A stretch of DNA of 64,000 nt from Prostheceraeus crozeri (taxonomy: Eukaryota; Platyhelminthes; Polycladida; Euryleptidae), in contig CAJQUW010001817.1 of assembly GCA_907163375.1 (NCBI GenBank), positions 39,111-103,110 of the forward strand, written 5' to 3'. The position numbers were made by a program, and so were the translations under genes. The notes beneath the pieces were generated by a model. The model searched no databases and was not told the origin of the DNA. It worked only from the letters and a program-made list of their open reading frames with translations. Below are positions 39,343 through 59,105 of this stretch, one piece after another (position 1 is the stretch's first letter; every line of letters begins with the position of its first letter).

Positions 39343-40731
39343 CTACATCATTTCATTTGGTTGCAAAGTCAATCCGAGACCAGGTGAAGAAACAACTTTC
39401 AGCCAATCGGATGCATGAGGAGCGGATATGTTTTCTAAACGTACCATGTCCGCTGTGGTTGAATTCTGTAATAGCAGTCGTTCCAATTCTTTTTCAATCT
39501 TCATTGGAAAGCGATGTTGGACGGATTTTAAATCCAAGTCTTTTAAAGTATCAAAATCAACACTATCACTCGAAGAAATGCGCAAGTTTATGTGTCTCAC
39601 TGCTGCTTCACAATTAGTTGTAAGCTCTAAACCAGACTTCAAGAAAGATGCAATAAATGCCGCACCAGCGTGTTCCGAAACTGACCGAAGACCTAAGCCT
39701 CCATTCTTAATGGCGAGCTGCGCTTGTTTCCATGCCACATCCGTACACTGAATGGCGGTGCACTCCTCCAAGGCTTTCCGCATACAATCGTCAGATTTCT
39801 TTAGGGCGTCAGTTGATTGTTCGACAGGTGTAGTTCTTGCAATGTGAACAAAGCGGCAAAATCCTGAACAACGCCGAAGAATAGCAAGGGCAACTTGAGG
39901 ATTGTTTAGTTCACTCAATGCATGAAGAAGTTCACCGGCCTTTCCAATCTTCTTAGAGATGAAGGCATCACAAAATTCTGCATTTCCAATCGGTGAAACA
40001 AGAATTTCAAAATTTGGTATATTCGATCTCTTAATGCTCTGATTGAGGAAATTCAAGTTTGAGCGACTGAAAACTTCGCATTTCAAAAAGTTGACCTTCA
40101 GGTCTGTCGTAGGAGTAGCTTGATCAAGACATTCGATTACACGCACAATAGATTCACGTGATCCAGCGAAAACACCGTCATCAAGATACCAGGCATGAAA
40201 GACTAGGGACACGGAATTCGAAATTGAGCGGATTATGCACTGTAATCCCAAGGAAAACAATAAAGGACCGAGAGGGTCTCCCTGCTGCACGCCTGTTTCT
40301 GATGTAAGCGTCCCCATAGGATGACGTAAAATGGGATGTGCTCCATAACATGCGTTTATCCATGCAAGCAATTCTGGAAAGTGATTTCGGCATTCATTGA
40401 AAATAAGCTGACGGGAAATAGAGTTAAATGCGTTCGCCATATCAACTTTTAGAATAATGAAATCATCATCATTCCAATGAGCATCTATTATTCTTCGTAG
40501 ATGGTGAATACTTTTTTCGGTACCACTCGGACAGGCAACTCCAAATTTATGGGGATGGAAGAAATCAGCAGCTTTGCTTCTTAGTGCTGTACAAGCACAT
40601 TTGCTCGCAATTCTGCGAAGAATTTCACCTGCAGCAATAGGTCTAATGTCTTTATCTCCTTTTCTTAGAGCGGTCACATTTGCGCTCGCAAGAATGTGAA
40701 GAATTTCAGGTGCTGCAGAGCTGCGTAACAT
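39343..40731 (-). pseudogene. LINE reverse transcriptase core
   Basis: 462 codons open from an ATG. Motifs: LRKGDKDIRPIAAGEILRR (RT1), ILKVDMANAFNSISR (motif A, catalytic Asp), TGVQQGDPLGPLLFSL (motif B), AWYLDDGVFAGS (motif C, catalytic Asp pair) and LKVNFLKCEVFS (motif D). A thumb-like region with an LRRCSGFCRFVHIART segment follows. The frame ends at an apparent one-base shift near 39343, after which GLPLNQPGKNC continues in a second frame. All palm residues are intact, so inactivation is by frameshifts and the insertion. Confidence 0.85.
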
Positions 40732-42886: not shown

Positions 42887-42892
42887 ACCGCG
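42887..42892. repeat. Polinton target duplication, left (ACCGCG)
   Basis: ACCGCG directly precedes the left TIR and recurs at 59100-59105 directly after the right TIR. Six-bp duplications are characteristic of Polinton integration. Confidence 0.95.
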
Positions 42893-43355
42893 AGTAGTAT
42901 AGGGTATAGGATTCGGCGCATCGCTTCGCTCAGCACCGAATCCCACACCTAGGTAGTTACAAAAAATGAAAAAATACAAAAAAATAGGGTCCTCCTGAAA
43001 TTTATAAAAAAACAGACAAAATAGATAAAAAAAATTAAAAAATACAAAAAAATAGGGTCCTCCTGAAATTTATAAAAAAACAGCTAAAATAGATGCGAAA
43101 TGGGAAAAATACAATGTCTATGACCCATGAACAAAAATATTCATTTAAAAATGGAAGATGAAAAAACAAAAGAACCATCAGCCCCCTTATATCCTTCATT
43201 ATCATATGACATAAAACCTTCGGTTCCCAATGAAATGGATATAGTAAAACACAAAGATAGAGTCAGGTACATGAAAGATAAGGAAGCCCAATTATTACTT
43301 AAACTAGAACATTATAATAAATTAAGAAAGAGATGGACCATAGCTAAGAATGTGA
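42893..43355 (+). repeat. Polinton left TIR
   Basis: 463 bp, reverse complement of 58625-59099 apart from a few indels in A-runs. It begins with AG, has two tandem copies of an AATAGGGTCCTCCTGAAATT module, and its inner part copies the 5' end of the ORF at the other end. Sequence diverges right after AAGAATGTGA (43355). Confidence 0.97.
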
Positions 43356-43360
43356 TGTAA
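43151..43360 (+). pseudogene. Truncated TIR copy of the two-TM protein gene
   Basis: The first 68 codons repeat the N terminus of the gene at 58215-58829 because the TIR cuts through it. The frame stops at TAA two codons after homology ends. The PSAP/YPSL region and the upstream promoter-like tract are retained, so a 69-residue peptide could be made. Confidence 0.85.
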
Positions 43361-43508
43361 CACAATTCCGCTGAAAACCCAAAAGTGATGAAAGGCGAAA
43401 ACCCGTCAGCTACACCATCAGCCCCTTTATAACCGTTATGTAAAATCAACCATTTTTGCACAAAATTGTTTCTTATTCAACAAAATTGACGCGAAATTAC
43501 ATATACAT
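43361..43508. other. Spacer inside the left TIR
   Basis: No gene. A CACCATCAGCCCCTTTATA segment echoes the ORF start at 43178. Confidence 0.4.
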
Positions 43509-43805
43509 TACAAAATGTCAAGAAATGTCTCCTCGAAAGGAGACATTTTACTCTGTAATTAAATTTGAAAAGTCTCCTGTCAAGGAGACATTTACATTAC
43601 TATATAATGATATAAGTAGTGTATGAATTGACACACTTACAAAATGTCAAGAAATGTCTCCTTTCGAGGAGACATTTTGCTCTGTAATTAAATTTGAAAA
43701 GTCTCCTGTCAAGGAGACATTTATATTACTATATAGTGATATAAGTAGTGCGTATGAATTGACACATTTACAAAATGTCAAGAAATGTCTCCTCGATAGG
43801 AGAGA
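43509..43805. repeat. 130-bp tandem repeat with hairpins, 2.3 copies
   Basis: Units start TACAAAATGTCAAGAAATGTC at 43509, 43638 and 43769. Each complete unit carries two palindromes, TGTCTCCT...AGGAGACA and GTCTCCTGTCAAGGAGAC. Position next to the TIR suggests a role in replication or transcription; this is inference. Confidence 0.85.
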
Positions 43806-43831
43806 TGGTGAGAATGTTACATTTGAGACTA

Positions 43832-44419
43832 TCAGAACTCCATTGGGCTTTCCATTCTTGGGACTTCCATTCTTGGGGTTTCCATTCTTGGGGTTTGCAT
43901 TATTTCTTCAAATGTTTTTCGGCGTCGTCCATTTTTGATGTGCGATGAAATTATACGAAAATTGATTTTAAAGAATGTTGCGGATTCATGAGAATCGGCG
44001 ATGAACGGATATTGTAAATAAAAGTTATAAAGTCTTCTTAAAAACGCGACATAACTCCGGGAATATTGGAAATAGTCACTAAATGTATTTCCCGCACGTA
44101 GAATTTTGAATGCACGCCCCTTCAAGATAGCTAGTTTCAAACTACTGTTCTCATGATGATTTTCGTAGTTTTCAATTCTTTGTAAGAAACCACGTAGCGT
44201 CGGCAGAGTTACTTCTTTATTCAGTTCCTCGTTGAAATTAAATGATGACGACGATTCACAAGATGCAGTTAAAGATGTTTCAAAAGTTTCTATAATTCTC
44301 CATTCTTTGTATAAATAATCTTCCTCTTCTTTTGTCTTAATATTCCTCCTTCTGTACTCTTGGAAAACTTCTTCATTAAAATATCCATCCTCATTGCAGA
44401 TGAATCGTGAAAGACACAG
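43832..44419 (-). CDS. Orphan Polinton ORF without an ATG, PRME repeats at the end
   Basis: 195 codons are open from a TGA at 44420-44422 to the stop at 43832, but no ATG occurs before the last 20 residues. Composition is that of a folded protein (for example TLPTLRGFLQRIENYENHH and YVAFLRRLYNFYLQYPF), so the first exon is probably elsewhere (spliced), or initiation is non-AUG. The C terminus is a five-residue repeat (PRMET, PRMEV, PRMES), matching 15-bp tandem repeats in DNA. I do not recognise the family. It faces the protease gene across a 200-bp spacer. Confidence 0.5.
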   Translation of the reverse strand: MCLSRFICNEDGYFNEEVFQEYRRRNIKTKEEEDYLYKEWRIIETFETSLTASCESSSSFNFNEELNKEVTLPTLRGFLQRIENYENHHENSSLKLAILKGRAFKILRAGNTFSDYFQYSRSYVAFLRRLYNFYLQYPFIADSHESATFFKINFRIISSHIKNGRRRKTFEEIMQTPRMETPRMEVPRMESPMEF

Positions 44420-44625
44420 TCACGTAGAACACTCACAGAGAGAATGAAAATTGACAATACGTGGCAGCATCAGTTCCTAATGGCAACCGCTACTGCTTGT
44501 GGCAGACAATGGTGTCATGCATAATGCGCTAGAGGCCGCCCCGCTAGAGGTAACAAAAGCCCTGAGTCATACAGATTGTGCAATTCTTTTGTGTCATTTC
44601 TGAAATAGAATTTGTCTCATGTAAA

Positions 44626-45048
44626 ATGAATAGCATAAATGACTTCTTAAAGCATTATGGAACGCAAACTACGACAAATTTCGACCTAAAGAAAATTGCT
44701 AATCAATTAGGAATAAAGAACTTTCATGTTTTAATGAGAGACGAATTACAATTGATCAAAAATAAGCCAACTGTAAATTTCATAACGAATCTTCACACTT
44801 CAGACCAAAACGGCGTACATTGGTCAGCAGGCGTTAAAAATCATCAGCAGAACTATTATTTTGACTCATACGGGCTTCCACCTACGAATGAAGTAAGAGC
44901 AATACTTGGCAATGGTATTTATAATACGTTTCAAATTCAAACACCAGGCACTACCTATTGCGGTCAATTATGTTTATACGTTTTGTACAAATTACAAAAA
45001 GGAGTACCATTTCTAGATATAATGTTAGAGTTAAACGATAAAGGTTAA
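44626..45048 (+). CDS. Adenain-like cysteine protease (PRO)
   Basis: 140 residues from the ATG at 44626, preceded by TGTAAA. Active-site order of the C5/adenain family: His of NGVHWSAGV, Asp of YYFDSYGLPP (Glu/Asp position), Gln before and Cys within TTYCGQLCLYVLY. It is shorter than adenovirus proteases (about 200), as usual in Polintons. It would cleave virion precursors, probably at (M/I/L)xGx-G sites such as those noted in neighbours. Its TAA overlaps the stop of the convergent integrase gene by sharing TTAA. Confidence 0.92.
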   Translation: MNSINDFLKHYGTQTTTNFDLKKIANQLGIKNFHVLMRDELQLIKNKPTVNFITNLHTSDQNGVHWSAGVKNHQQNYYFDSYGLPPTNEVRAILGNGIYNTFQIQTPGTTYCGQLCLYVLYKLQKGVPFLDIMLELNDKG

Positions 45049-46364
45049 AGCTCGGTTTTCTGTAATTCGTTTTCATAGAATCTACCTTTGATATCCTCAT
45101 TATCTAAATCTATAATTTCATAAGTAAACGGATAAGTTTGATTTATTTTAGAAACTTCAAATATCTCTTTCGTCCAGTATCCGACGAAGCCCTTTTCAAA
45201 TTTGTTCTTATATTTAAATATTCGTACCCTATCCCCAATTTTAAATTTCGGCTTACGTTTCTGTAAATTCGGATTACTCTCATTCGAATAATTATTTTCG
45301 AATATTTTCTTTCGTATTAAATCAGGGTCGTCAGAAGCATTCTTTGGAGTTTCTTCAATACCTGAATGAATCTTATTGTTATACTCTTCTACAACTCCTG
45401 GTAATATCTTCAACCATTTCTGATTTCCTTGCTCAGTAAATTTCTTAAAGATCTTACTTTTTAGCGTTCTATTAAAGCGCTCTATTACTACAGCCTTTCC
45501 TGCATTTTCTGTGGAATAAACAGTTTCAAATAGTGGCTTTACATTTCGGTTGTAAAACTCGGACCCTTTATCAACAAACAATTTCCTTGGCTTTCTAAAA
45601 CTTTCTTTAAAGATTTCTTCAAACGCATATTTAACTGACAGACCACTTTTGTTTTTTAAAGGCTTTACCCAAGCATATCGTGTATATAAATCTATAACGG
45701 TCAATGCGTACTTAAACCCTCTTTCATTAGGCATATTAATTAGATCTGCACTCCAAATATCATCTTTATTAAATACTTTTACCTTCAATAGATATTTCGG
45801 CTTTCTGTATTCCTTGTGAATTTCGGACGCGTAGCGGCTTGGGTCATTCGACATTTTATTCAACGAAGTTGACGGAACTAAAGTTTTATCTATCCCCTGG
45901 CCAAAAAGCATTTTTGCTTGTAAAGCTTTCTTAACAAACATTCTTTCAATTCTTTCTCTAAATGTAGGATTTTGAATACTATCTAATTCTTGTATCATTT
46001 TCTTATCTGCTTCATGTCGAGAACTTAGGTCATGATTTCGATAAGCTAAATCATGTTTATAAGCGGCGGCGTCTACTCTATTTATTGGTTTACTATTTTC
46101 TCTAGGCGTGTCATCATCGTTTAATCTTAAATCTAATCTTGTGCCGGGACCAGTAAAATTATGCCCAGGTAAATGTTTCTCCTTCGAATATTTACTCCAA
46201 ATAAAGCCAGGAAAGTTTTCTAATGCTTTTTGTATATCACCACCGAAGTGGTGTGGAACTTTGTTCTTGTCACCTCCGGTGTGGTGTGGAACTTTGTTCT
46301 TGTCACCTTTTAAGAGATAATCCATTAGATCTAGATTTGAAATCCTTAAGTTATTCAAATTCAT
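45045..46364 (-). CDS. Phospholipase A2 - integrase fusion protein
   Basis: 439 residues. 1-45: a duplicated GDKNKVPHHxG segment. About 64-130: parvovirus-VP1-type phospholipase A2, with a calcium-loop TGPGT and the catalytic HD pair in DAAAYKHDLAY (His104, Asp105). Linker with LFGQ-G (153-157), a match to the adenain site (M/I/L)xGx-G. 200-300: retroviral-type integrase core, Asp207 (WSADLINM), Asp265 (FVDKGSEF), Glu295 (VIERFNRTLK); the Asp265-Glu295 gap is short. 370-439: SH3/chromo-like tail (KFKIGDRVRIFKYKN...GRFYENELQKT), the typical Polinton integrase end. The usual N-terminal zinc region is replaced by PLA2. ATG follows a TTTAAAA tract. The frame is single; assembly error is possible but no join is visible. 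Confidence 0.9.
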   Translation of the reverse strand: MNLNNLRISNLDLMDYLLKGDKNKVPHHTGGDKNKVPHHFGGDIQKALENFPGFIWSKYSKEKHLPGHNFTGPGTRLDLRLNDDDTPRENSKPINRVDAAAYKHDLAYRNHDLSSRHEADKKMIQELDSIQNPTFRERIERMFVKKALQAKMLFGQGIDKTLVPSTSLNKMSNDPSRYASEIHKEYRKPKYLLKVKVFNKDDIWSADLINMPNERGFKYALTVIDLYTRYAWVKPLKNKSGLSVKYAFEEIFKESFRKPRKLFVDKGSEFYNRNVKPLFETVYSTENAGKAVVIERFNRTLKSKIFKKFTEQGNQKWLKILPGVVEEYNNKIHSGIEETPKNASDDPDLIRKKIFENNYSNESNPNLQKRKPKFKIGDRVRIFKYKNKFEKGFVGYWTKEIFEVSKINQTYPFTYEIIDLDNEDIKGRFYENELQKTEL

Positions 46365-46380
46365 TTTTAAAGATTAAATC

Positions 46381-46854
46381 TTATCGCACCATACTAGGAT
46401 TTAGATATATGCCAGATCCGTCTTTTGTTTCTTTTATCTCAATCAAATCATCAATATTGTGTAGGACATTTTTAAGAACTCGTTTCCCTTCATTAGCTAA
46501 ATTTAATTTACTAATAAAATTATCTACTATTCCGTCACCTCTAGCAGCTTTCTCTAACTCCCTATTATGACGTTTTTGCTCTTCTAATGCTGCCTTCTCT
46601 GCTTTATTTTTATTTACTGCCTGGACAATACCAGCTGTCCCACCTGCAACACTTCCTGCTGCTGCTATACCACCTATGATTAGCGGAATTAATGGGAGAA
46701 TTCCACCATTCTTTTCTTCTTGTAATTTGATATTCTCTATCATTGGTTTACTTATGTAATACTTCCTTTTGTTAATTGTAATAGCTTTAGGTGTATTTCT
46801 GTCAATGATGTTACGTAGTTTTAATTCAACCGTTTTATTATTCACTTGCGCCAT
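46381..46854 (-). CDS. pX-like (core/membrane-active) virion protein
   Basis: 157 residues. A Gly-rich hydrophobic stretch, GGILPLIPLIIGGIAAAGS through about residue 80, is followed by a charged helix. A Gly-Gly followed by such an apolar block is the hallmark of adenovirus pX and Polinton counterparts. Starts directly on TTTATTAAAAA. It lies between integrase and hexon, as in other virion clusters. Function in DNA condensation or membrane disruption is inferred. Confidence 0.65.
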   Translation of the reverse strand: MAQVNNKTVELKLRNIIDRNTPKAITINKRKYYISKPMIENIKLQEEKNGGILPLIPLIIGGIAAAGSVAGGTAGIVQAVNKNKAEKAALEEQKRHNRELEKAARGDGIVDNFISKLNLANEGKRVLKNVLHNIDDLIEIKETKDGSGIYLNPSMVR

Positions 46855-46867
46855 TTTTTAATAAAAA

Positions 46868-46948
46868 ATTTATAGTCTTAGGTTTTACTAACCGACCGGA
46901 GCGAAGCTCCTCTGGCTTTAGACGACCGGAGCAAAGCTCCTAAGGTTA
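46868..46948. repeat. Intergenic palindromic repeats GACCGGAGCGAAGCTCC
   Basis: Two copies of GACCGGAGC(G/A)AAGCTCCT lie between two genes reading the same way; each has a GGAGC...GCTCC palindrome. Possible transcript-end hairpins. Confidence 0.7.
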
Positions 46949-48283
46949 CTAACCTATCCTAACCATCTTTCCATTAATAATTTCAATAGAATATTCGGCG
47001 TCTTCTAGCAATAAACCATAAGCCATCAATGATGTTGTGGAATTTGCCTTTTCAATATTAATTGTCACATCACAACCGGTCTTGATAATATCTTCAGATT
47101 GTGCACTTAAATCAAAACAGAAAACAGGATATAAATTCTTCCAATCTACAGGATTTAATTGTGCTTCAACTCCAAATTCTCGGCACAAATTTCTATAAGC
47201 GTCATATCCTTCCATGAATTGATTATTTGCGTTATCAAATCTCAATGGATCAATAGGATAACGTGTTTGATTTAATGAAATTTGTAAACTTCGAATTGAA
47301 TTAGTATGGAAAATACTATTGTTCTTATCAAAACTAGGCGTTTCATTCTTTTGAAAAGTGAGCAAAAAATATCTTGGTGTATTTGATGTCCTTGTGAAAT
47401 GCCAGTTAAATCTTTGTTCGGTAAACGTGACAGAGCTCGCGGTACGCTTCATAAAACTTACTGGAATTGGTTTGCCCGTATTTAATCGTTTCGTAATAGT
47501 TGTTTCAACCTCTAAACTAGGAGTAATGTGCTTAATCCACCATTCAAGTCTATCAATTTTTAGGTATGCTTTCTTCCCAGCCTTTCCATAAAATATTGAT
47601 TCATTATTTACAGTGCGATGAACTATGAGTTTGAATTTCAAGTGACATGATATTTTATTGTAATCTAAATACCCGAATAATGGAGACAATGACCAATTAA
47701 CAGTTTGTTTACTTTTATTATTAAAATTGCGTCTTTTCTGGTATGAGCTATTTTGTGTACTGTTTAACTGTTTCACTATGTTTTCTACATCTTTCGCAAT
47801 TCCTGCTGCATCTGTTCCAGTGTGAGTTAAATCATCTTTAAGTATGGCGGTATGGTTATCAGGAAACCATCCTTCGATTTCATGCATTTTAGTATTTTCA
47901 CCTATTGTTACAAATCGAAGCATTGAATCAATAATGCCAGGTGAATCACTTATGGTTTCTATATTTTGTGTTGCAACATCTAAACGCATTTGTGTGAATA
48001 ATCTTGGGAAGAAATTGTTTTCTAATGTAATATTATCCGTAGCCGGTAATGGTGTTGTAAAATCAGCATCAGAATAGAGAGAATATTCACAGTGTAAAAA
48101 TGAATCGGGTAAATATAAATAACTTTGTTGATTGTCAACTTCAAAAATTAAATCGCCTCCTGTATTCACTCTACCTGAAGAACCGGGGTTCATAGCAATT
48201 CTTATATAGTCATTCTTTTTTTGATTGTAAGTAATGAACGGGGGATCATCTAATCTAAATTTGCTTTCAATCAGAGTTGCCAT
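46949..48283 (-). CDS. Major capsid protein (hexon-like, double jelly roll)
   Basis: 444 residues. Hallmarks in common with Polinton major capsid proteins: an N-terminal RVNTGGDLIFEVDNQ strand followed by LYLPDSFLHCEYSL, a central region with WWIKHITPS, and the C-terminal VFCFDLSAQSEDI...CDVTINIEKANS...AYGLLLEDAEYSIEIINGKMV, in which strands of the second jelly roll are clear. It forms pseudo-hexameric capsomers in this lineage. Start ATG follows AATAAAAAAATATA. The identification rests on pattern and context; a structure prediction would settle it. Confidence 0.85.
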   Translation of the reverse strand: MATLIESKFRLDDPPFITYNQKKNDYIRIAMNPGSSGRVNTGGDLIFEVDNQQSYLYLPDSFLHCEYSLYSDADFTTPLPATDNITLENNFFPRLFTQMRLDVATQNIETISDSPGIIDSMLRFVTIGENTKMHEIEGWFPDNHTAILKDDLTHTGTDAAGIAKDVENIVKQLNSTQNSSYQKRRNFNNKSKQTVNWSLSPLFGYLDYNKISCHLKFKLIVHRTVNNESIFYGKAGKKAYLKIDRLEWWIKHITPSLEVETTITKRLNTGKPIPVSFMKRTASSVTFTEQRFNWHFTRTSNTPRYFLLTFQKNETPSFDKNNSIFHTNSIRSLQISLNQTRYPIDPLRFDNANNQFMEGYDAYRNLCREFGVEAQLNPVDWKNLYPVFCFDLSAQSEDIIKTGCDVTINIEKANSTTSLMAYGLLLEDAEYSIEIINGKMVRIG

Positions 48284-48297
48284 TATATTTTTTTATT

Positions 48298-48376
48298 AGA
48301 AAAAATCAGTTTGATACTCGGCTAAAGCCTCTGAACAAGGTTCTACTAGAATTTTGCTACTAGAATTTTGCTAGAC
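48298..48376. repeat. Spacer with duplicated 3' end of the pVI-like gene
   Basis: GCTACTAGAATTTT occurs twice in tandem at the stop codon of the pVI-like gene, and CTCGGCTAAAGCCTCTGAACA here recurs at 48905-48930 in the next spacer. Confidence 0.75.
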
Positions 48377-48830
48377 CATTTCCTCTCATTTCTTCAATTG
48401 TTTTTTCATCATGTTTACTTTCCATCTTCGCTAATTTAGCAATTTTGTTTTTTGTTTCCTCTGAGAGCTTTTTGTCTTTTTGCATTTCTTTTGCGTCATT
48501 TCTAAGTTTGCGAATAGCTTCTAGTTGCTTTAATTCGTTTTGTGACTTAACAGCATTCGATATTGCACTAGCTGTACTACCTATAGCAGCCGCTCCTTTA
48601 GCAGCAGATGAAATCAAATCTTTATTATTTTTAATCAAGTTAACGATACTTCCGATACCAGAAAAGATGCCAGCTCCTTCTGTTTGGACGGCACCTGCAG
48701 TGCCTAGGAACTTTTGTGTTCCAACAGTTTCTACACTATCATAATGGTACACAGGATTCATACGTGGTTCATGAGCAATTTTATTATTTGAAGCAAAATG
48801 CTTAAGATTGTGTTTATAAATTATAGGCAT
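48360..48830 (-). CDS. pVI-like amphipathic virion protein
   Basis: 156 residues. After a polar N terminus comes an amphipathic, Gly/Ala-rich block GAGIFSGIGSIVNLIKNNK (52-70) and AAKGAAAIGSTASAISN, the character of adenovirus pVI membrane-lytic regions. A helical Lys/Glu stretch follows, and the last residues are EEMRGNGLAKF; MRGN-G (148-152) fits the adenain consensus, so five residues would be released. Short C-terminal release is also known for adenovirus pVI. Starts on CTTAAAAAA. Confidence 0.6.
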   Translation of the reverse strand: MPIIYKHNLKHFASNNKIAHEPRMNPVYHYDSVETVGTQKFLGTAGAVQTEGAGIFSGIGSIVNLIKNNKDLISSAAKGAAAIGSTASAISNAVKSQNELKQLEAIRKLRNDAKEMQKDKKLSEETKNKIAKLAKMESKHDEKTIEEMRGNGLAKF

Positions 48831-48849
48831 TTTTTTAAGCTTAAATTTG

Positions 48850-48935
48850 ACTTTTGGGCCGATCGGCTAAATTCTATAGGTTAGTAACCTGAGGACCTTT
48901 GGTCTGATCGGCTAAAGCCTCTGAACACGGTTCGA
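48850..48935. repeat. Spacer with palindromes GATCGGCTAAAGCC
   Basis: GGTTAGTAACC and GGACC...GGTC inverted pairs, plus a copy of the CGGCTAAAGCCTCTGAACA module. Lies between co-directional fibre-like and pVI-like genes. Confidence 0.6.
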
Positions 48936-49727
48936 TTAAGATTTACGTTTGTGTATGGACAACAACTTCGCGGTAACTTTATTAATTGCCTGTTGCACTT
49001 TATCTATTGCGTCAAGCAGCGTGTGATGTACTTTAATTTCTTTTTCATTTACTTCTATTTTTTTCTCACTTTTCTTTACTTCTGTTTTAAGAGCGGCCAA
49101 TTGAACTTTAATATTATCGAAATTCGTTTTAAGGGTCTTCAAGTCACTAATCTTTTGTTTAAGTCCTTTAACTTCATTTATCATTCTGTTCATTTGCTTT
49201 ACTTGTTGTGTGATGCGGCTACTTAATTCATCAACACTTTTTTGGAATGTGGATTGCAGCTGTTGTAAGTGTTGTAATAATTTTCGATTCTTTTCGCTTA
49301 CTTTTTCTAACTCTTCTTTCAGTTGTTTATTTTGATTTGTATTCTTTGCAATGGCAGACTTTAAATTTAGTGATAACAGGATCACAAGTTTTGAATGTTC
49401 TGTTATTTTTTTATGAAGTTTTACTATATCTGCTTCTATATTTCCATGTTTGCTACTTAGGTCTGTTAGCTTTTCTTGCAGTCTTTCATCATTCTGCTTT
49501 AGAAGCTTGGTTTCTTTCATTAGAGGAGACAGCAGTGACACAATTCTATCGAACTGTTTATCAACATATTCTTTATTTGCTAACTCAGTACTTTGTTGTG
49601 GAAGAATAGAAAGATGTAACGGACCTGTTAAAATGTCTCCAGTTTTCATGATATAGTTGTCTAGTTCTATTTCTGATTCTTGATTATTCGGTGTGTAAGC
49701 ACACCCGCCAACATTTGTTAACATCAT
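48936..49727 (-). CDS. Fibre-like coiled-coil protein with tail-fibre motif
   Basis: 263 residues from the ATG at 49727 (upstream in-frame TTG is in the promoter tract). Residues about 24-57 read DNYIMKTGDILTGPLHLSI...TELANKEYVDKQ, closely resembling the repeat motif of phage and NCLDV tail-fibre proteins. The remaining 200 residues are continuous heptad-like coiled coil. An N-terminal attachment unit plus long coil suits a trimeric spike or fibre at the capsid vertex. NVGG-C near the N terminus fits an adenain site but may be chance. Function is inferred. Confidence 0.55.
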   Translation of the reverse strand: MMLTNVGGCAYTPNNQESEIELDNYIMKTGDILTGPLHLSILPQQSTELANKEYVDKQFDRIVSLLSPLMKETKLLKQNDERLQEKLTDLSSKHGNIEADIVKLHKKITEHSKLVILLSLNLKSAIAKNTNQNKQLKEELEKVSEKNRKLLQHLQQLQSTFQKSVDELSSRITQQVKQMNRMINEVKGLKQKISDLKTLKTNFDNIKVQLAALKTEVKKSEKKIEVNEKEIKVHHTLLDAIDKVQQAINKVTAKLLSIHKRKS

Positions 49728-49746
49728 TTTTTTTTTATTTAAAAAT
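49728..49746. promoter_or_regulatory. 19-bp shared divergent promoter
   Basis: Only TTTTTTTTTATTTAAAAAT lies between the ATG of the minus-strand fibre-like gene and the ATG of the plus-strand zinc-finger gene. Both starts sit on the AT tract typical of this element, so promoter elements must overlap or lie within coding sequence. Confidence 0.65.
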
Positions 49747-50118
49747 ATGTTATCCAACAATTCATCATTAAATAAACATATGAGAACATGTAGTGATTGT
49801 GGAAAAAGTGTAACATCTAAGAACTTTATGCGTCACCAAAAAACATGTCAATCACCATCACAACCAAAAGTAAAAGATAGACAATGTGCGAATTGTAATA
49901 AGTTTTTTACTAGTCAAGGTTTCTTGAATCATTCTCATTCATGTGCTATTAATACACGAAAATGCACTAATTGTCAAATCGTTAAGCCCAAAACAGAATT
50001 TTATGATAGTAAATACCGATGTAAAGAATGTTTAAAAACACAAGTGAGATGTAACAAGTGTAATAAAGTTCTGTTGGAGAGAAACTACTCACGTCATGCA
50101 GCAATTTGCATGATTTAA
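49747..50118 (+). CDS. Zinc-finger protein, four Cys-rich modules
   Basis: 123 residues. Modules: CSDCGKSVTSKNFMRHQKTC (CX2CX10HX4C), CANCNKFFTSQGFLNHSHSC, a CX2C...CX2C pair (CTNCQIVK...CKECLK) and CNKCNKVLLERNYSRHAAIC. Basic residues between the fingers suggest nucleic-acid binding, perhaps a late transcription factor that reads the AT-tract promoters; that link is inference. It opens the rightward block of four genes. Confidence 0.7.
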   Translation: MLSNNSSLNKHMRTCSDCGKSVTSKNFMRHQKTCQSPSQPKVKDRQCANCNKFFTSQGFLNHSHSCAINTRKCTNCQIVKPKTEFYDSKYRCKECLKTQVRCNKCNKVLLERNYSRHAAICMI

Positions 50119-50136
50119 TTAATTTTATATCCGTAA

Positions 50137-50304
50137 TAGTCCGATACTCACTTGAGCCTCCGTAATAGTCCGGTGCTCTTTTGAGTGTTTTACCTTCATT
50201 TGAGCCCCGGACTCAATAGTCCGTACTAGTCCGGAAGTCCTAGAGAGGTTAAACACTCAAGTGAGCACCGGACTATTTCAGGTGCTCAACTGAGTGTCGG
50301 ACTA
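50137..50304. repeat. 168-bp nested inverted repeat in the spacer
   Basis: Outer arms 50137-50156 / 50285-50304 (TAGTCCGATACTCACTTGAG) and inner arms 50164-50190 / 50251-50277 (27 bp, two mismatches) are inverted. The whole spacer would fold as a cruciform before the ATPase gene. Confidence 0.85.
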
Positions 50305-50346
50305 GCTGAGAGAGTTTTAGACAAATTTTTCATATAAAAATTAAAA

Positions 50347-51561
50347 ATGAATTATGAAAAATTGTATACCGAAATTCCCAATCGGCCTCCCACGATCATC
50401 AAACAACGTGAACAAAATAATGATTCACAATCTTTATTTTCAGAAAATTCAGATCTAGGAAGACTCTTTGGGTTTCTGAAATTTCATTGTTTGAAAATTA
50501 TTCTTATATGTATTCTTATCTATCTTATTTATTGTTTCATAAACTGGTTAGGGTTCTTACAAACAGCAGAACAAACGAAAATTACATTTTATAAAAATCA
50601 AACCAAAAACTTTAAAGGTTGGAAAGAAGTTAGGCATAACGACGAGAAACCTAAAGGACGTGCCGCACAAGAGAACTTACATTTTATAATATATGGCAGA
50701 ACAGCGAGTGGAAAGACTACGTTTCTTAGAAGATATATAAATCAACATTACCCTAAGGAAGGTAATGTACATGTGTTTTGTCTGCAGAGAGATGAATGGC
50801 AAGGATATTCAAATGTTTACGGTGAAAAAGATTTATGTGTGTTAGAAGATATGAGTACTTTTGCTGGGACATACGAGCAAAAGTCTTTACTAGTGTTAGA
50901 TGATGTAGCTAGTTTAGTAAAGCAAAAGAACATATCAGAAATATTCACAAAAGGTCGTCACCATCATATACAAATTGTAGTATTAGCTCATAAAGCCTGC
51001 GACGTGGATAATAAGATTAGAGAAAACATAGAAGTCTTTTATACAACTACTCAAAATAATGTAGCATTCTTTGAGGATATCAAGAAAAATTATAGACTAA
51101 CTTTACCCTTAGCTAAATATGTACATGTTAAGTACGGTATAATACGGGTTGATACTATTTTGAATCAAATGCAAGTGTATGATAGCGATCTAAATATACT
51201 ATTGGATACTGAACATGATTTTTATAGTAATGCGACAGATTTTGATATTAGTCTTTATGCGGGTGCTAAGAACTTATCGCCGCATAATATAGAAGAAATA
51301 ACAATTTTTCTAGAAAACGAATCACTTGAGCCACTAACAATCATACCCGAAACATTTTATTTCTATTTCGATCATTATCTGAATAATGTGTTAAAAATTA
51401 AAACCCCTGAACGATTAGAGAATAGAGATGCGCTAGATGTTATTAGAACAGGCATTAATGATTTTCGTGATGTACTAAAAAATGTACAACCTCTAGTCAC
51501 TGATGCTAAAAGTACATTGAGTGACATAAAACCAATATTAAATGAGTTTAATGATATGTAA
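50347..51561 (+). CDS. Second P-loop ATPase with N-terminal membrane anchor
   Basis: 404 residues. A transmembrane helix, CLKIILICILIYLIYCFINW (48-67), is followed by an ATPase domain: Walker A GRTASGKT (117-124), Walker B LLVLDD (181-186), and FTKGRHHHIQIVVLAHK, which parallels FTRGRHNNCSVFYLTQS in the packaging ATPase. Hence a HerA/FtsK-type relative, probably a paralogue of 55609-56385. The C-terminal 150 residues are unknown, ending in an amphipathic coil. Membrane-anchored DNA translocation or packaging at a membrane is inferred. Starts on ATTAAAA. The last 20 bp and stop are duplicated. Confidence 0.8.
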   Translation: MNYEKLYTEIPNRPPTIIKQREQNNDSQSLFSENSDLGRLFGFLKFHCLKIILICILIYLIYCFINWLGFLQTAEQTKITFYKNQTKNFKGWKEVRHNDEKPKGRAAQENLHFIIYGRTASGKTTFLRRYINQHYPKEGNVHVFCLQRDEWQGYSNVYGEKDLCVLEDMSTFAGTYEQKSLLVLDDVASLVKQKNISEIFTKGRHHHIQIVVLAHKACDVDNKIRENIEVFYTTTQNNVAFFEDIKKNYRLTLPLAKYVHVKYGIIRVDTILNQMQVYDSDLNILLDTEHDFYSNATDFDISLYAGAKNLSPHNIEEITIFLENESLEPLTIIPETFYFYFDHYLNNVLKIKTPERLENRDALDVIRTGINDFRDVLKNVQPLVTDAKSTLSDIKPILNEFNDM

Positions 51562-51580
51562 ATGAGTTTAATGATATGTA
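51541..51580. repeat. 20-bp duplication at the ATPase stop codon
   Basis: AATGAGTTTAATGATATGTA occurs at 51541 and 51561; the first copy includes the stop codon. Confidence 0.95.
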
Positions 51581-51600
51581 AATTTTTTTCTTTTTAAAAT

Positions 51601-51891
51601 ATGGAGTACAAAATAGAACACGTGCCAGTTTTAAAAGATCATTATCATCCTGTAAATTCAAAACAATCAGTTAAAAGTCAATATCATCGAAAATATATGC
51701 AATTCGTGCAAGATTATAAAATAAAACATGGTATAAGAAGTTACGCTAAAACAAAAGACTTTCCACTGTGTCTACGAAGTTTTAGAGTATTCTTAGCGTA
51801 CAATAATTTATGGTGGTTGGTTAATAAAGAACGATTAACAGTTTACGATTTAGAAACATTGCATCAACTAAATATTCCTGTGTATATGTAA
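51601..51891 (+). CDS. Small Polinton ORF, unknown
   Basis: 96 residues, basic, with FPLCLRSFRVFLAYNNLWWLV near the end. No domain recognised. Between ATPase 2 and polymerase, starting on CTTTTTAAAATATG like its neighbours, which supports expression. Confidence 0.6.
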   Translation: MEYKIEHVPVLKDHYHPVNSKQSVKSQYHRKYMQFVQDYKIKHGIRSYAKTKDFPLCLRSFRVFLAYNNLWWLVNKERLTVYDLETLHQLNIPVYM

Positions 51892-51920
51892 TTAAAAACA
51901 TAATTTTTTCTTTTAAAAAT

Positions 51921-54900
51921 ATGAATTGTAAAATGAGTAACAAATCAACGCATACGCTTGACGAGTTAATAAAGAAACAAATTGAGGAGTTTGATGAACA
52001 AATTAAACATAGTAAACGTCGTAAACGCAATCGTGGTAAACGTAGTAAAAAACAGAAACATATTAGGCGTAGTATTAGACGTAATACTAAAAAACAGAAG
52101 CGTAGAACAAAGGAAACATCAACCACACCAATTCCCGACATATTCTCTGATGATGATGATAGACTTGGTGATGATCTATTGAATCTGTTTAATCCGAACG
52201 CTATCACATATGAAAATGAACTTTTTACTAATGTAGTAAATGATATACGTAACCTTTTACGCAATGGGAAAGTTTTAAATTTATTGGGTGTAATAAAAAA
52301 AGAAGATGGAAGCACAATAGAAAACTTTTACGCTACGTTTTATAATAAAAATTCATTTGAAACATGGTTTCTTAATCTAGAAGAGAAATCCGATGCTAGT
52401 GAATGGATTTTTACAGGTAGTATCAAATACGAAGATTTTGGTATGAAACTCGTACAAAGATCACATAGAGGCGCTGGTATTAATATGAAATATAGAATCA
52501 AAGAATACATCGGGCAATATTGTTACATTCCTTCTGAGGATTTCTGCTTTATAAAATGTTACAACGCCTTACGTGGGTTCAATCAAGAACAAGCTAAAAT
52601 TATAATCGAGATGTTTAATGACTTTTTATATAAAGAGAAAGCTACATCTAGGACAGGAGTAATGGCAAACTGTAAATTTTCCCAATTCAATAAATACTTT
52701 GGAGAATGTGTACAGTATTATAGTGCTACTAATCGTCATTTAAATCCCAGAGGTATTACAACACCTTATAGTCATGTTTATTACAATTATTTTCACGAAG
52801 GTTCATCAATAGGTCATTATTGTTTAATCAATAAATTCCATAAAGCAGAAGCTATTAGAGAAATTGAAAATAATTTCAAACCAATATATAAAACTGTCAC
52901 TGATGAAAATCTAACAACACTTCCGTATAAGACCATAACAAAGAAACCAATTGACTATGGTTCAACATATATATGGGATCTCGAAACTTATCCAGATCCT
53001 CGTTGTGCAACAGCTCATCCTATTCCTTATGCTTTAGGTACTATCAATTTCAATAAATTCATGTGTTGCTTACCGAAGCAAAGATTGGAAGAAATAGACG
53101 CACGATTGTTACGCGATATGATTAAAATAAAAAGGAGCAAGGATGAACATGAGATTAAAGAACTTAAGAAACAGATAAGTGAATATAATACCTTAACTGA
53201 GCAAGAACTTAACAAACTTCAACGTTGGGTGAAAATCTTTATTAGGAAACATAATGAATGTCCGATCGGGGGAAACCCAGAGGACGTATGTCCGATACAT
53301 CAATTTTTCAAAAACCTTGGATCTCTTAATCATTCGAAAGTAACTTTAATAGCACATAATTCATCAGGTTTCGATGCATATTTTCCGATAAAATCTAATT
53401 TTAAATTAACTAAACCACCGCTTAAAACATCACGAGGAATACTCACTGCTTCTTTACAAAATCCTTATACAACTGAAAGTGTTAGTAAGTATATCCAACG
53501 TTCCTCTAGATCTAAGCAACTAGGTGACTCTACAAAACGTAACATAAAACCAAGCAAACCTTTACAAACCATTGTAATGAAATGTAGCTATCAACACGTG
53601 AAAACAAGTCTTTCCAAATGGTGCGAGAATTTTAAAATCCCTAGCAATATGTGCAAATTAAATTATGAAATTGGCGAAATTACACATGACAATTATCTAG
53701 AAAAAGAACATGAGTGGAAACCGTATTTAATTAACGATGTTCTTTCATTAGCATTTTGTATCTACAAGTATAATAATGTTATGAAAGAATTAGTTGGTGA
53801 AGATATAACTACTAATTTAACATCCTCCGCTTTAACATTTAACGGTTGGATGAAGAGTGTACAAGAAGCCAACATAAATATTCATTCGCATACTGATTTA
53901 TGGACTAGGAACTATGTTAGAAAATCTGTTAAAGGTGGAAGAGTGTCAGCAAATATAAGACATTACGGATCTCCATTTTGTAACATCTTGATACCAATAT
54001 TACAACGATATTTTCCTGGTAATAATTTAATAGATTTAATGAAGCAGTATAATCAGTTGCAAGACAAGAATGCTCTCTGTAAAGAAATTAAACATAAACT
54101 ACGCGACCAACAAAATGAATTCTTAATGGCTTTTGATGCAACATCTTTATATCCATCAGCTATGTATGACGAACATTCAGAATACCCTAAAGCTGAATCT
54201 GCTAGAAAATTTAGACAAGAAGAAGAACAAGCAGTATTATATCAATTTAACACTCAATCATTTCGCCCTAAAACTGGAATATTCACAGTTGTGTTTCATT
54301 ATCCTGATGAGATGTTTTTTCAACCAGTTCCTGCGAAAGATAAGGTAAAGAATGAAAACAATTGTAACCAAGAAATAATAAGGTTTAGGAATGGAACGTG
54401 TTATGATGTATTAACTTCTGTAGACATACAGGAAATTGTTAGATGTGGCGGGAAAATATTATCTATTACAGATGGTATAATTTATGAAGAAAATTATCAC
54501 ATTTCACCATTTCGCAAATACATTGAAAAGCTCTTCAATTTAAGAAAAAAATATAAAATAGAAGGAAACACTGTGGGCGATGAGTTAATTAAATTATTAA
54601 TGAATTCACTATATGGAAAAACCGTACAAAAAGACATAACCACTAAATATCATTTATGGAATGAAAGTACATTGAGAAAAAATTTCACTCAAGAAGTAAA
54701 AGATTTTGAAAAAGTAAATGATGAACAATTCTTAGTGAAAGTAGAAATGGAAGATGATGAATTTCTTAAAGCTAATATTACAGACACTGAAAAGACGGCC
54801 AAAGGCCTGAGCAGCTACGCTACGACGACCAACGGTCTGAGCAGCTACGCTACGACGACCAACGGTCTGAGCAGCTACGCTGCGACATCATTCATGCCAT

Positions 54901-55511
54901 CACATTTAGGTTCTTTTATTCTTGCTCACTCTAGAAGAATCATGAACAACTTTATTTTAGAAATTAATGGTTTCAAAGAAAAATACATTCATTATACAGA
55001 TACTGATTCAATATATATTTCCAACGAACTCTTCAATAAATTAGATGCTGCTGGATATGTTGGTGGGGAATTGTGTCAAGGGAAAAATGATTATGGAAAT
55101 GGTGGAATTATTTTTGCAATGTTTATTGCACCTAAAGTAAAATATTGTATTACTGTAGATGAACAAGGGAGACTTAGTGAAAAGAAAACATTTAAGGGTT
55201 ATACAAAAACTAAAGTAAAAGTAGAAGATTTTCTAAAATTATACCATGGGGAAACATTGACAACAATTGTTAATAAACCATGGAAAAGATCTTTAGAAAC
55301 TGGTATTAGTATTCCTGATAAAAATAATAACACTGAAGAAAAAAGATTCACTGGTAAAATAAATATTCTTAAACGTCAAGCGCCTAATGCAAATGGTATT
55401 ATGCTCCCCTATAGCGGAGAAGATGTACAAGACGAAATATTTCAACGAATAAAAAAAGAATGTAATATAATTGAATACAATGATAGTGAAGACTGGGAAG
55501 AGGAATTATAA
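51921..55511 (+). CDS. Protein-primed family B DNA polymerase (PolB)
   Basis: 1196 residues. A highly basic N-terminal region (about 30-65) may be an NLS or part of a terminal protein. 3'-5' exonuclease: IWDLETYP (Asp353, Glu355), HNSSGFDAYF (Asp485), YLINDVLSLA (Asp606). Polymerase: motif A AFDATSLYPSAMY (Asp739), motif B LMNSLYGKT (Asn895), motif C YTDTDSIYIS (Asp1027, Asp1029). Typical Polinton length and order. Odd feature: three copies of GLSSYATTTN-like sequence (about 958-988) between motifs B and C, coded by GC-rich 30-bp repeats. It replicates the linear element from its termini. Confidence 0.96.
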   Translation: MNCKMSNKSTHTLDELIKKQIEEFDEQIKHSKRRKRNRGKRSKKQKHIRRSIRRNTKKQKRRTKETSTTPIPDIFSDDDDRLGDDLLNLFNPNAITYENELFTNVVNDIRNLLRNGKVLNLLGVIKKEDGSTIENFYATFYNKNSFETWFLNLEEKSDASEWIFTGSIKYEDFGMKLVQRSHRGAGINMKYRIKEYIGQYCYIPSEDFCFIKCYNALRGFNQEQAKIIIEMFNDFLYKEKATSRTGVMANCKFSQFNKYFGECVQYYSATNRHLNPRGITTPYSHVYYNYFHEGSSIGHYCLINKFHKAEAIREIENNFKPIYKTVTDENLTTLPYKTITKKPIDYGSTYIWDLETYPDPRCATAHPIPYALGTINFNKFMCCLPKQRLEEIDARLLRDMIKIKRSKDEHEIKELKKQISEYNTLTEQELNKLQRWVKIFIRKHNECPIGGNPEDVCPIHQFFKNLGSLNHSKVTLIAHNSSGFDAYFPIKSNFKLTKPPLKTSRGILTASLQNPYTTESVSKYIQRSSRSKQLGDSTKRNIKPSKPLQTIVMKCSYQHVKTSLSKWCENFKIPSNMCKLNYEIGEITHDNYLEKEHEWKPYLINDVLSLAFCIYKYNNVMKELVGEDITTNLTSSALTFNGWMKSVQEANINIHSHTDLWTRNYVRKSVKGGRVSANIRHYGSPFCNILIPILQRYFPGNNLIDLMKQYNQLQDKNALCKEIKHKLRDQQNEFLMAFDATSLYPSAMYDEHSEYPKAESARKFRQEEEQAVLYQFNTQSFRPKTGIFTVVFHYPDEMFFQPVPAKDKVKNENNCNQEIIRFRNGTCYDVLTSVDIQEIVRCGGKILSITDGIIYEENYHISPFRKYIEKLFNLRKKYKIEGNTVGDELIKLLMNSLYGKTVQKDITTKYHLWNESTLRKNFTQEVKDFEKVNDEQFLVKVEMEDDEFLKANITDTEKTAKGLSSYATTTNGLSSYATTTNGLSSYAATSFMPSHLGSFILAHSRRIMNNFILEINGFKEKYIHYTDTDSIYISNELFNKLDAAGYVGGELCQGKNDYGNGGIIFAMFIAPKVKYCITVDEQGRLSEKKTFKGYTKTKVKVEDFLKLYHGETLTTIVNKPWKRSLETGISIPDKNNNTEEKRFTGKINILKRQAPNANGIMLPYSGEDVQDEIFQRIKKECNIIEYNDSEDWEEEL
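54795..54890. repeat. 30-bp coding repeat in PolB
   Basis: Three units of GGTCTGAGCAGCTACGCTAC + GACGACCAAC (the first and last variant), markedly GC-richer than the rest of the gene, kept in frame. Confidence 0.9.
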
Positions 55512-55523
55512 TACACTAGTCAG

Positions 55524-55630
55524 TGAACAAATGTTCTATTCAGAGTTTTACTCTGCGAACAAATGTTCTATAGACTTTCAGTCGGGGCAAAGCCCCTCGA
55601 GGCGAAGCCTAGTCAGCGAACAAATGTTCT
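55524..55630. repeat. Spacer with three GAACAAATGTTC palindromes
   Basis: GAACAAATGTTCTAT lies at 55525, 55557 and 55618; the last is the 3' coding end of the packaging ATPase. GGGGCAAAGCCCC and AGGCGAAGCCT hairpins lie between. The convergent PolB and ATPase genes end here, so these may act as bidirectional terminators. Confidence 0.75.
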
Positions 55631-56385
55631 ATAACTCTATCATGTACTTTTTTATCAATATTGACTGTGATAAAACCATAGTCGTTTGCCCAAGCATTGT
55701 TACACGATTGTTTAAATTCATCTTTATCTCTTATACATAAGTCTCTTAACAAATCACTTAGGTTTCTTTGGTTGATTTCGAAAAGCATAAAAATATTAGC
55801 ATTCTTTCTAATAACACTTCCATCTAATGAATACATACTTTGTGTCAAATAAAAGACACTACAGTTATTGTGTCTACCTCTTGTAAAATAATTTCTCTGA
55901 ACTGCCTGATTTCTATCATTAACACAATCATCAAACACCACACAATGTTTTTTCGTTTTATTTAGTTTACTAGGATCTTGCATATTGCCACTATCATCTA
56001 TTAATTGTATCGTTATGTGCCTATTTCTATTGGGTTCTACTAGTTGTTTATTTTTCGCTGCTTCTTCACACCAGGAACTTATTTCTTCTTCATACTCCGA
56101 TTTTTCATATTCTTCAAACAGTGAAGCTATAGTTGATTTTGTAAGATTATTTTCAAAACCATGTTTCAAAAATTGATAAATAGGTTGTTCTGCTGTTGTT
56201 GTATAAATGATAAGATTGTTATAATCCAAAAATTTGGGTGTCGTGAGAATTTTAAATAATAGATATGTTTTTCCACAACCTGATCTTCCACAAATAACTG
56301 ATAAAACTTTATTTGACAAGTTATGATGATGATTGAATTTCACTTTCTTGTTTAGTGGATATTTTTCACAACTGCTTTCACTCAT
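55609..56385 (-). CDS. Packaging ATPase (FtsK/HerA/A32-like)
   Basis: 258 residues. Walker A GRSGCGKT (33-40), Walker B HCVVFDDC (148-154), then YFTRGRHNNCSVFYLTQSMY, the sensor/arginine region characteristic of Polinton and NCLDV genome-packaging ATPases. The size is normal. It pumps DNA into capsids. Starts on ACTTAAAAAATG. First of a leftward block with penton and two accessory genes. Confidence 0.93.
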   Translation of the reverse strand: MSESSCEKYPLNKKVKFNHHHNLSNKVLSVICGRSGCGKTYLLFKILTTPKFLDYNNLIIYTTTAEQPIYQFLKHGFENNLTKSTIASLFEEYEKSEYEEEISSWCEEAAKNKQLVEPNRNRHITIQLIDDSGNMQDPSKLNKTKKHCVVFDDCVNDRNQAVQRNYFTRGRHNNCSVFYLTQSMYSLDGSVIRKNANIFMLFEINQRNLSDLLRDLCIRDKDEFKQSCNNAWANDYGFITVNIDKKVHDRVIEHLFAD

Positions 56386-56407
56386 TTTTTAAGTCAATAT
56401 TTTTTAA

Positions 56408-57196: not shown

Positions 57197-57200
57197 TTTT

Positions 57201-58112: not shown

Positions 58113-58214
58113 TATTTTATAAGATAATATTTGAATTTTGTGGTAGCATTGGTACACAGCATAAACACTGCACCAAAGGTGCTGAGACTTGAAGAGTCGA
58201 CTTTACTGAACAAC

Positions 58215-58829
58215 TTATTTTTGTTCTATTGAACTTTGTTCTAACGTTTTTAATAAAGTTCTTATTTCTTCTAAAAAAGCTTCATTGTTTACTTTGTCTT
58301 GAGGTTTAACAGGAATTTTAGTTGCTTCTCTAGCTATTTGGTCAAATTTTTCAATCTCATCTAACGTAATAACATTGTCATCACACACTCTCTGGAAGTA
58401 ATAATGTAGTTTATCATATACTTCTTTGACATGTGTATGTTTCTTAGTTAAGGATTTTCGTTTCTTAGACATTACAGATTTATCTATCACTGTTGCAAGT
58501 GACGTTGTGAAGACACCTGTGCCTGTTAAAGCAGTAGCGACAACAGGAATTGTAAGAACGCCAGACGAAATGACAATAGTGAGAGCGCCTAAAGAAATTG
58601 TTAAACAGATACCAACGCCTTGTGTCACATTCTTAGCTATGGTCCATCTCTTTCTTAATTTATTATAATGTTCTAGTTTAAGTAATAATTGGGCTTCCTT
58701 ATCTTTCATGTACCTGACTCTATCTTTGTGTTTTACTATATCCATTTCATTGGGAACCGAAGGTTTTATGTCATATGATAATGAAGGATATAAGGGGGCT
58801 GATGGTTCTTTTGTTTTTTCATCTTCCAT
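58215..58829 (-). CDS. Two-transmembrane protein with PSAP and YPSL motifs
   Basis: 204 residues from the ATG at 58829, which sits on ATTTAAAA (an earlier ATG at 58853 adds eight residues). N terminus: EPSAPLYPSLSYD, in which PSAP is a TSG101-type and YPSL an ALIX-type late motif. Then a coil, two hydrophobic segments with GVGICLTISLGALTIVISSG and VVATALTGTGVFTTSLATVI, and a helical charged C terminus. Comparable proteins with two Gly-rich hydrophobic helices recur in Polintons. Membrane localisation and ESCRT recruitment are inferred. Its 5' end lies inside the right TIR. Confidence 0.65.
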   Translation of the reverse strand: MEDEKTKEPSAPLYPSLSYDIKPSVPNEMDIVKHKDRVRYMKDKEAQLLLKLEHYNKLRKRWTIAKNVTQGVGICLTISLGALTIVISSGVLTIPVVATALTGTGVFTTSLATVIDKSVMSKKRKSLTKKHTHVKEVYDKLHYYFQRVCDDNVITLDEIEKFDQIAREATKIPVKPQDKVNNEAFLEEIRTLLKTLEQSSIEQK

Positions 58830-59099
58830 TTTTAAATGAATATTTTTGTTCATGGGTCATAGACATTGTATTTTTCCCATTTCGCATCTATTTTAGCTGT
58901 TTTTTTATAAATTTCAGGAGGACCCTATTTTTTTGTATTTTTTCATTTTTTTGTATCTATTTTGTCTGTTTTTTCTGTTTTTTTTTATAAATTTCAGGAG
59001 GACCCTATTTTTTTGTATTTTTTCATTTTTTGTAACTACCTAGGTGTGGGATTCGGTGCTGAGCGAAGCGATGCGCCGAATCCTATACCCTATACTACT
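58625..59099 (-). repeat. Polinton right TIR
   Basis: 475 bp, reverse complement of 42893-43355 with small indels. Ends CTACT at 59099, followed by ACCGCG. Confidence 0.97.
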
Positions 59100-59105
59100 A
59101 CCGCG
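59100..59105. repeat. Polinton target duplication, right (ACCGCG)
   Basis: Perfect copy of 42887-42892. Confidence 0.95.

What the first reader, a model, noticed from the sequence alone, without database searches (positions are those of the whole stretch)
45045..46364. Phospholipase A2 fused to a Polinton integrase, with a protease site in the linker
One uninterrupted frame joins a VP1-type PLA2 (calcium loop TGPGT, HD catalytic pair at 104-105) to a DDE integrase core and chromo-like tail. LFGQ-G (153-157) lies between them and matches the adenain consensus (M/I/L)xGx-G. This suggests a virion polyprotein that brings both a membrane-breaching lipase and the integrase into the capsid, to be separated by the element's own protease during maturation. 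I do not know of this fusion being described for Polintons; the usual integrase zinc region is missing where PLA2 sits.
Basis: partly seen in the sequence, partly recalled or inferred. Interest (0 to 1): 0.92.

Follow-up and report, generated by a model that had tools for sequence, protein, structure and literature searches.

The report
Polinton phospholipase fused to its integrase
A virus-like Polinton element makes one protein that joins a membrane-attacking phospholipase to the enzyme that inserts its DNA into chromosomes; the joined form recurs in many related elements and may be how both enzymes travel in a virus particle.

The parts
42887..42892 (.). target-site duplication ACCGCG, left
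   Evidence: read directly; identical to 59100-59105
42893..43355 (.). left terminal inverted repeat of the Polinton
   Evidence: 97% over a 475-column alignment with 58625-59099; 328 nt at 100%
44578..45048 (+). PRO, adenain-like cysteine protease candidate (HW, FDSYG, CGQLC)
   Evidence: ORF; motifs recalled, no fitting Pfam or PDB match, poor single-sequence model; convergent neighbour in 8 of 8 loci read
45045..46364 (-). PLA2-integrase fusion ORF, 439 aa
45897..46235 (-). PLA2 module, residues 44-156
   Evidence: Pfam PF08398 at 62-129; mean pLDDT 83-98 per block over 51-150, lower outside; BFVD match to an entomopoxvirus PLA2-like protein
45894..45908 (-). LFGQ-G, residues 153-157, candidate protease site
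   Evidence: 40 of 40 copies compared; xxGxG 76 of 98, strict consensus 6 of 98 relatives
45834..45890 (-). variable, predicted disordered linker, residues 159-177
   Evidence: pLDDT <50 at 158-170; 15-36 residues between G157 and Y178 in 40 copies
45048..45833 (-). integrase core and C-terminal domain, residues 178-439
46381..46854 (-). small virion-protein candidate (weak Adeno_PX match, below cut-off) with two GxG motifs
46949..48283 (-). major capsid protein, double jelly roll
   Evidence: PF21738 E 2.2e-21
48360..48830 (-). pVI-like candidate (likeness recalled) with EGAG-IFSG and C-terminal RGNG-LAKF
   Evidence: G-x-G-IFSG in 12 of 16 relatives, C-terminal G-x-G-[LVI]AKF in 10 of 16, 4 of the other 6 lacking that end
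50347..51561 (+). A32-like ATPase
   Evidence: PF04665 E 6.9e-8
51921..55511 (+). family B DNA polymerase
   Evidence: PF03175 E 3.9e-33
55609..56385 (-). second A32-like ATPase
   Evidence: PF04665 E 1.3e-5
58625..59099 (.). right terminal inverted repeat
59100..59105 (.). target-site duplication ACCGCG, right

Best explanation
The ORF is a genuine two-enzyme protein of a Polinton (polintovirus) living in a large eukaryotic genome. Shown: fused architecture, kept catalytic residues, purifying selection on both domains, predicted disordered linker, position in the capsid-gene cluster beside a protease-like gene. Inferred: it is made with the capsid proteins, packaged, and delivers a parvovirus-like PLA2 that breaches the endosomal membrane together with the integrase that later inserts the genome; the PLA2 module is the integrase's ticket into the virion. 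Inferred with less confidence: the element's adenain-like protease cuts after LFGQ, freeing PLA2 with the C-terminus that some stand-alone PLA2 proteins already have, and freeing an integrase without a zinc domain.
For: Both domains above Pfam cut-offs. 103 of 120 listed hits carry both domains. 96 host copies scored, 95 without a stop. G72, D98, H104, D105, Y108, D120, D207, D265, E295 in 96 to 98 of 98 relatives; in the 40 copies compared the integrase residues in 40 of 40 and the PLA2 residues in 38 of the 38 that reach them. dN/dS 0.19 PLA2, 0.08 integrase core, 0.11 C-terminal domain. PLA2 and integrase distances correlate among the 98 (r 0.74; maximum of 500 permutations 0.06). Fusion convergent to PRO in 8 of 8 loci, with the 46381-type ORF on the other side in 7 of 8. 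Residues 151-158 dN/dS 0.02, on 8 codons only, while the linker beyond has indels. GxG-aliphatic motifs in the two small proteins 4 seen, 0.42 expected, kept in 30 of 30 copies read for the 46381 ORF and in 10 to 12 of 16 relatives for the 48360 ORF. Eight of the 97 hits end one residue after the glycine equivalent to G155, at the would-be P1. Entry lipases in Polintons are proposed in PMC4642659 (passage read).
Against: The adenain P4 position is K or R in 83 of 119; strict match 6 of 98. Stand-alone PLA2 proteins keep the same G-x-G without an integrase to release, so it may only cap the last helix. The strict consensus is not enriched in the capsid-gene cluster. The GxG-aliphatic motif was defined after seeing the proteins; the capsid protein has none, PolB has one. 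G-x-G is missing in 22 of 98 relatives. PRO is identified by recalled motifs alone. Copies used for dN/dS came from the best protein matches, which biases the ratio down. No evidence of virions, packaging or activity.
Confidence: 0.6

Rival explanations
1. Uncut bifunctional enzyme: the fusion stays intact; PLA2 docks the integrase in the capsid or on membranes and stands in for the missing zinc N-terminal domain as a spacer or multimerising part. G-x-G is the cap of the last PLA2 helix.
For: G-x-G also in stand-alone PLA2s; P4 not conserved; G155 ends the modelled helix 135-155; in some relatives only 4 residues lie between G155 and the integrase head.
Against: Linker length and sequence differ even among host copies, which is odd if the domains must hold a fixed geometry; GxG-aliphatic motifs recur in neighbouring virion-candidate proteins.
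Confidence: 0.33
2. The PLA2 domain has lost enzyme activity and is only a packaging or structural tag on the integrase.
For: No activity is shown; the third loop position varies (G74 in 81 of 98).
Against: G72, HD pair, Y108 and D120 kept in 96 to 98 of 98 relatives; dN/dS 0.19.
Confidence: 0.06
3. Assembly join, read-through or decayed pair of genes.
For: None found.
Against: 95 of 96 scored host copies without a stop; 103 of 120 listed database hits fused.
Confidence: 0.01

Closest known systems
Polintons/Mavericks (polintoviruses)
   Same: PolB, rve integrase, A32-like ATPase, double-jelly-roll capsid protein, inverted repeats, 6-bp target duplication
   Different: integrase lacks a zinc domain and carries an N-terminal PLA2; two A32-like ATPases
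PLA2-bearing Polintons, e.g. Spodoptera Sf Maverick CAP (PMC5803895, passages read)
   Same: parvovirus-type PLA2 domain encoded by a Maverick
   Different: there PLA2 (CAP) and INT are listed as separate ORFs; here they are one frame
Parvovirus VP1 unique region PLA2 (PF08398)
   Same: domain family, calcium loop and HD pair; PLA2 tethered to another viral protein
   Different: tethered to an integrase, not to the jelly-roll capsid protein
Retroviral (foamy virus) integrase
   Different: no zinc N-terminal domain; upstream partner is a lipase; DNA-virus-like element

Membership tests
Polinton/Maverick | terminal inverted repeats with 6-bp target duplication, about 15-20 kb | tested here: met
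   42893-59099, 16,207 bp, repeats 97% alike, ACCGCG on both sides
Polinton/Maverick | family B DNA polymerase, rve integrase, A32/FtsK-like ATPase, double-jelly-roll capsid protein | tested here: met
   PF03175, PF00665, PF04665, PF21738 above cut-offs
Polinton/Maverick | adenovirus-type cysteine protease | tested here: inconclusive
   recalled motifs HW, FDSYG, CGQLC only; no PDB hit, no fitting Pfam hit, model poor
Polinton/Maverick | penton protein | tested here: inconclusive
   56408-57196 has no penton hit in Pfam
Parvovirus-type PLA2 (PF08398) | profile match, calcium loop, HD catalytic pair, further aspartate | tested here: met
   E 5.4e-9; conservation
Parvovirus-type PLA2 (PF08398) | calcium-dependent lipase activity | not testable with these tools
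   needs an enzyme assay
Retroviral-type integrase | DDE triad and RNase-H-like core with C-terminal domain | tested here: met
Retroviral-type integrase | N-terminal HHCC zinc domain | tested here: not met
   no Cys in residues 1-204; HHCC-like pattern in 0 of 97 relatives
Adenain cleavage site (M/I/L)xGx-G | full consensus conserved among fused relatives | tested here: not met
   6 of 98; GxG core 76 of 98
Adenain cleavage site (M/I/L)xGx-G | cleavage by the element's protease | not testable with these tools
   needs recombinant protease or particles

The most novel reading that the evidence does not exclude
Polintons use a retrovirus-like plan: a virion-packaged polyprotein carries the entry lipase and the integrase, and the maturation protease separates them at a G-x-G site at the PLA2 edge, so that integrase arrives in the cell with the genome instead of being made afterwards. 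The PLA2-integrase join has formed or split several times, which suggests a selected design and not one accident.
Probability: 0.4. Interest if true: 0.82.

Novelty: new variant of a known kind. Interest (0 to 1): 0.62.

Why it matters
Whether Polintons make infectious particles, and whether the integrase travels in them, is open. A single gene that fuses a membrane-breaching enzyme, useful mainly during entry, to the integrase is hard to explain for a purely intracellular transposon. Its upkeep in many open copies and its spread among related elements argue for an extracellular stage, and give a concrete protein to look for by mass spectrometry.

Tried and rejected
Assembly join: rejected. 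PLA2 and integrase as separate ORFs in the host genome: a search with a stand-alone PLA2 gave 150 scored matches; 30 loci were held; 21 gave a PLA2 frame by my pattern, 19 of these read into the integrase head, 2 stop earlier, and 9 were not parsed; the other 120 were not read. Strict adenain consensus: not conserved. Alternative start at M152: not a conserved Met (M in 24 of 119). The GxG in PRO as an autocleavage site: two of eight copies read GTGT there. IMG/VR: queries with the fusion, its alignment, PolB and the capsid protein found no relatives; the PLA2 alignment found 5 short contigs. Phage records: none. VIA-align listed no PLA2 chain; the list was filled by integrases. PRO model: mean pLDDT 41.6, unusable. 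PHROGs, 7 proteins: two weak matches of no use. Papers: 10 searches; passages read in PMC3671162, PMC4061559, PMC4642659, PMC5803895, PMC11071296, PMC4028283, PMC12220804 and PMC7805220; a term search in PMC8363768 found nothing. The rest were seen only as listings. A paper that I recall as the founding adintovirus paper (doi 10.1093/ve/veaa055) is not held, so the fusion could be described there or in other papers not held.

Limits of the counts: A2 uses 97 of the 120 listed hits of 1444. The site in the fused set was located by pattern in 96 of 97. For the PLA2 tree I hand-picked 40 stand-alone proteins and 7 outgroups of the 97 hits; the tree rests on 115 columns, long branches meet, and the bootstrap had not settled. 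'Stand-alone' means that the predicted protein ends; their genomic neighbours were not seen. For dN/dS I fetched 40 of the 96 scored copies, left out the one with a stop (L041) and added the window copy, 40 in all; two (L018, L043) lack the N-terminal part because the script began at the first Met in frame.

Full report
What is there. The reported coordinates hold a 439-aa open frame on the minus strand. Pfam finds a phospholipase A2 domain of the parvovirus VP1 type (residues 62-129) and a retroviral-type integrase core (202-276), both above curated cut-offs. The surrounding element is a Polinton of 16,207 bp, 42893-59099, with inverted repeats of 463 and 475 nt, 97% alike, flanked by the 6-bp duplication ACCGCG. 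It encodes PolB, a double-jelly-roll capsid protein and two A32-like ATPases, and a protease-like ORF recognised only by motifs that I recalled. The fusion lies in a minus-strand run with the capsid gene and two small proteins, and is convergent to the protease-like gene in 8 of 8 host loci read, one of them the window's own; the neighbouring small ORF was found in 7 of 8.

It is real and common. Of 1444 database hits, 120 are listed and 103 of these carry both domains. Of the 23 that I left out of the alignment, 21 still hold at least part of PLA2. In the host's 2.05-Gb genome 96 copies were scored and 95 have no stop. The two small neighbouring ORFs each gave 150 scored copies, none with a stop; these numbers are caps of the search, and two haplotypes of one locus may be counted apart. 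A search of the same genome with a stand-alone PLA2 gave 150 matches; of 30 loci held, 21 were parsed and 19 of these read into the integrase. Named hits to the PLA2 part come from a limpet (Lottia gigantea; several of its gene models read into the integrase head) and a spider (Araneus ventricosus; PLA2 with DUF5679, no integrase).

The linker site. LFGQ-G fits (M/I/L)xGx-G here and in all 40 copies compared, but only 6 of 98 relatives, the window included, fit it; P4 is K or R in 83 of 119. What is conserved is K at 151 (119 of 119), G at 155 (118 of 119) and G at 157 (99 of 118), at the end of the last PLA2 helix. After it the sequence is free: 15 to 36 residues between G157 and Y178 in the copies, 4 to 76 residues from G155 to the integrase head in the 96 of 98 relatives that could be measured. 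The same motif is found in stand-alone PLA2 proteins: of 97 hits, 35 had no located site, 10 read into an integrase head, 29 have a tail of 3-22 residues, 13 a longer one, and 10 end within two residues of the G155 position, 8 of them after exactly one. So the motif is not specific to the fusion. There the motifs ARG[D/E]GIV and DGSGIYL are kept in 30 of 30 copies read; G-x-G-IFSG in 12 of 16 relatives and the C-terminal G-x-G-[LVI]AKF in 10 of 16. G-x-G-[ILVM] occurs 8 times in minus-strand ORFs against 1.18 expected by shuffling, and 2 times against 0.90 in plus-strand ORFs; the strict consensus is not enriched in the capsid-gene cluster (2 against 0.68, P 0.15). I chose the G-x-G-[ILVM] motif after seeing the proteins. 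At P2' in fused relatives 45 of 72 with G at P1' have I, L, V or M, background 0.22.

History. Pairwise distances of the PLA2 and integrase parts correlate (r 0.74), so the gene is mostly inherited whole. But the fused forms are not one clade with respect to the stand-alone ones (p-AU 0.002; 6 changes of state). Some fused and some stand-alone forms share an N-terminal DUF5679 domain. PLA2 and integrase have thus been joined, or split, more than once, on a tree of only 115 columns.

Mechanism and status. That Polintons can carry parvovirus-type PLA2, probably for entry, is in print (PMC4642659, PMC5803895; passages read), with PLA2 (CAP) and INT as separate ORFs in the latter. In ten searches of the held library I saw no description of a PLA2-integrase fusion; the paper I recall as the founding adintovirus paper was not held. 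I take the protein to be a virion component that brings lipase and integrase together (0.6), with cleavage at GQ-G somewhat less likely than not on present evidence. It is a new variant of a known kind.

Noticed in passing
50347-51561 (+) and 55609-56385 (-): Two different A32-like ATPase ORFs in one Polinton; the first has, by eye, a hydrophobic stretch near its N-terminus.
   Followed up: no
48360-48830 (-) and 46381-46854 (-): Both small proteins end with a short peptide after GxG (RGNG-LAKF; DGSG-IYLNPSMVR), reminiscent of the adenovirus pVI C-terminal cofactor peptide (recalled).
   Followed up: partly
   Followed up: partly
45834-45890 and 46236-46364 (-): Linker and N-terminus of the fusion are built of short blocks that differ between copies, in frame, while PLA2 and integrase columns show no gaps.
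   Followed up: partly
42893-43355 and 58625-59099: The inverted repeat includes the first part of ORF 58215-58853, so a truncated copy of that gene start lies at the other end.
   Followed up: no
49747-50118 (+): C2H2 zinc-finger ORF between the coiled-coil-like ORF and the ATPase.
   Followed up: no
L004 27-494: A divergent PLA2 ORF on a 3.4-kb IMG/VR contig beside an ORF that looks like a methyltransferase by eye.
   Followed up: no
29855-31765 (-), 62760-63944 (-), 39343-40731 (-): Two ORFs with GIY-YIG and reverse-transcriptase similarity (partly below cut-offs), Penelope-like by recall, and one further reverse-transcriptase ORF flank the element.
   Followed up: no
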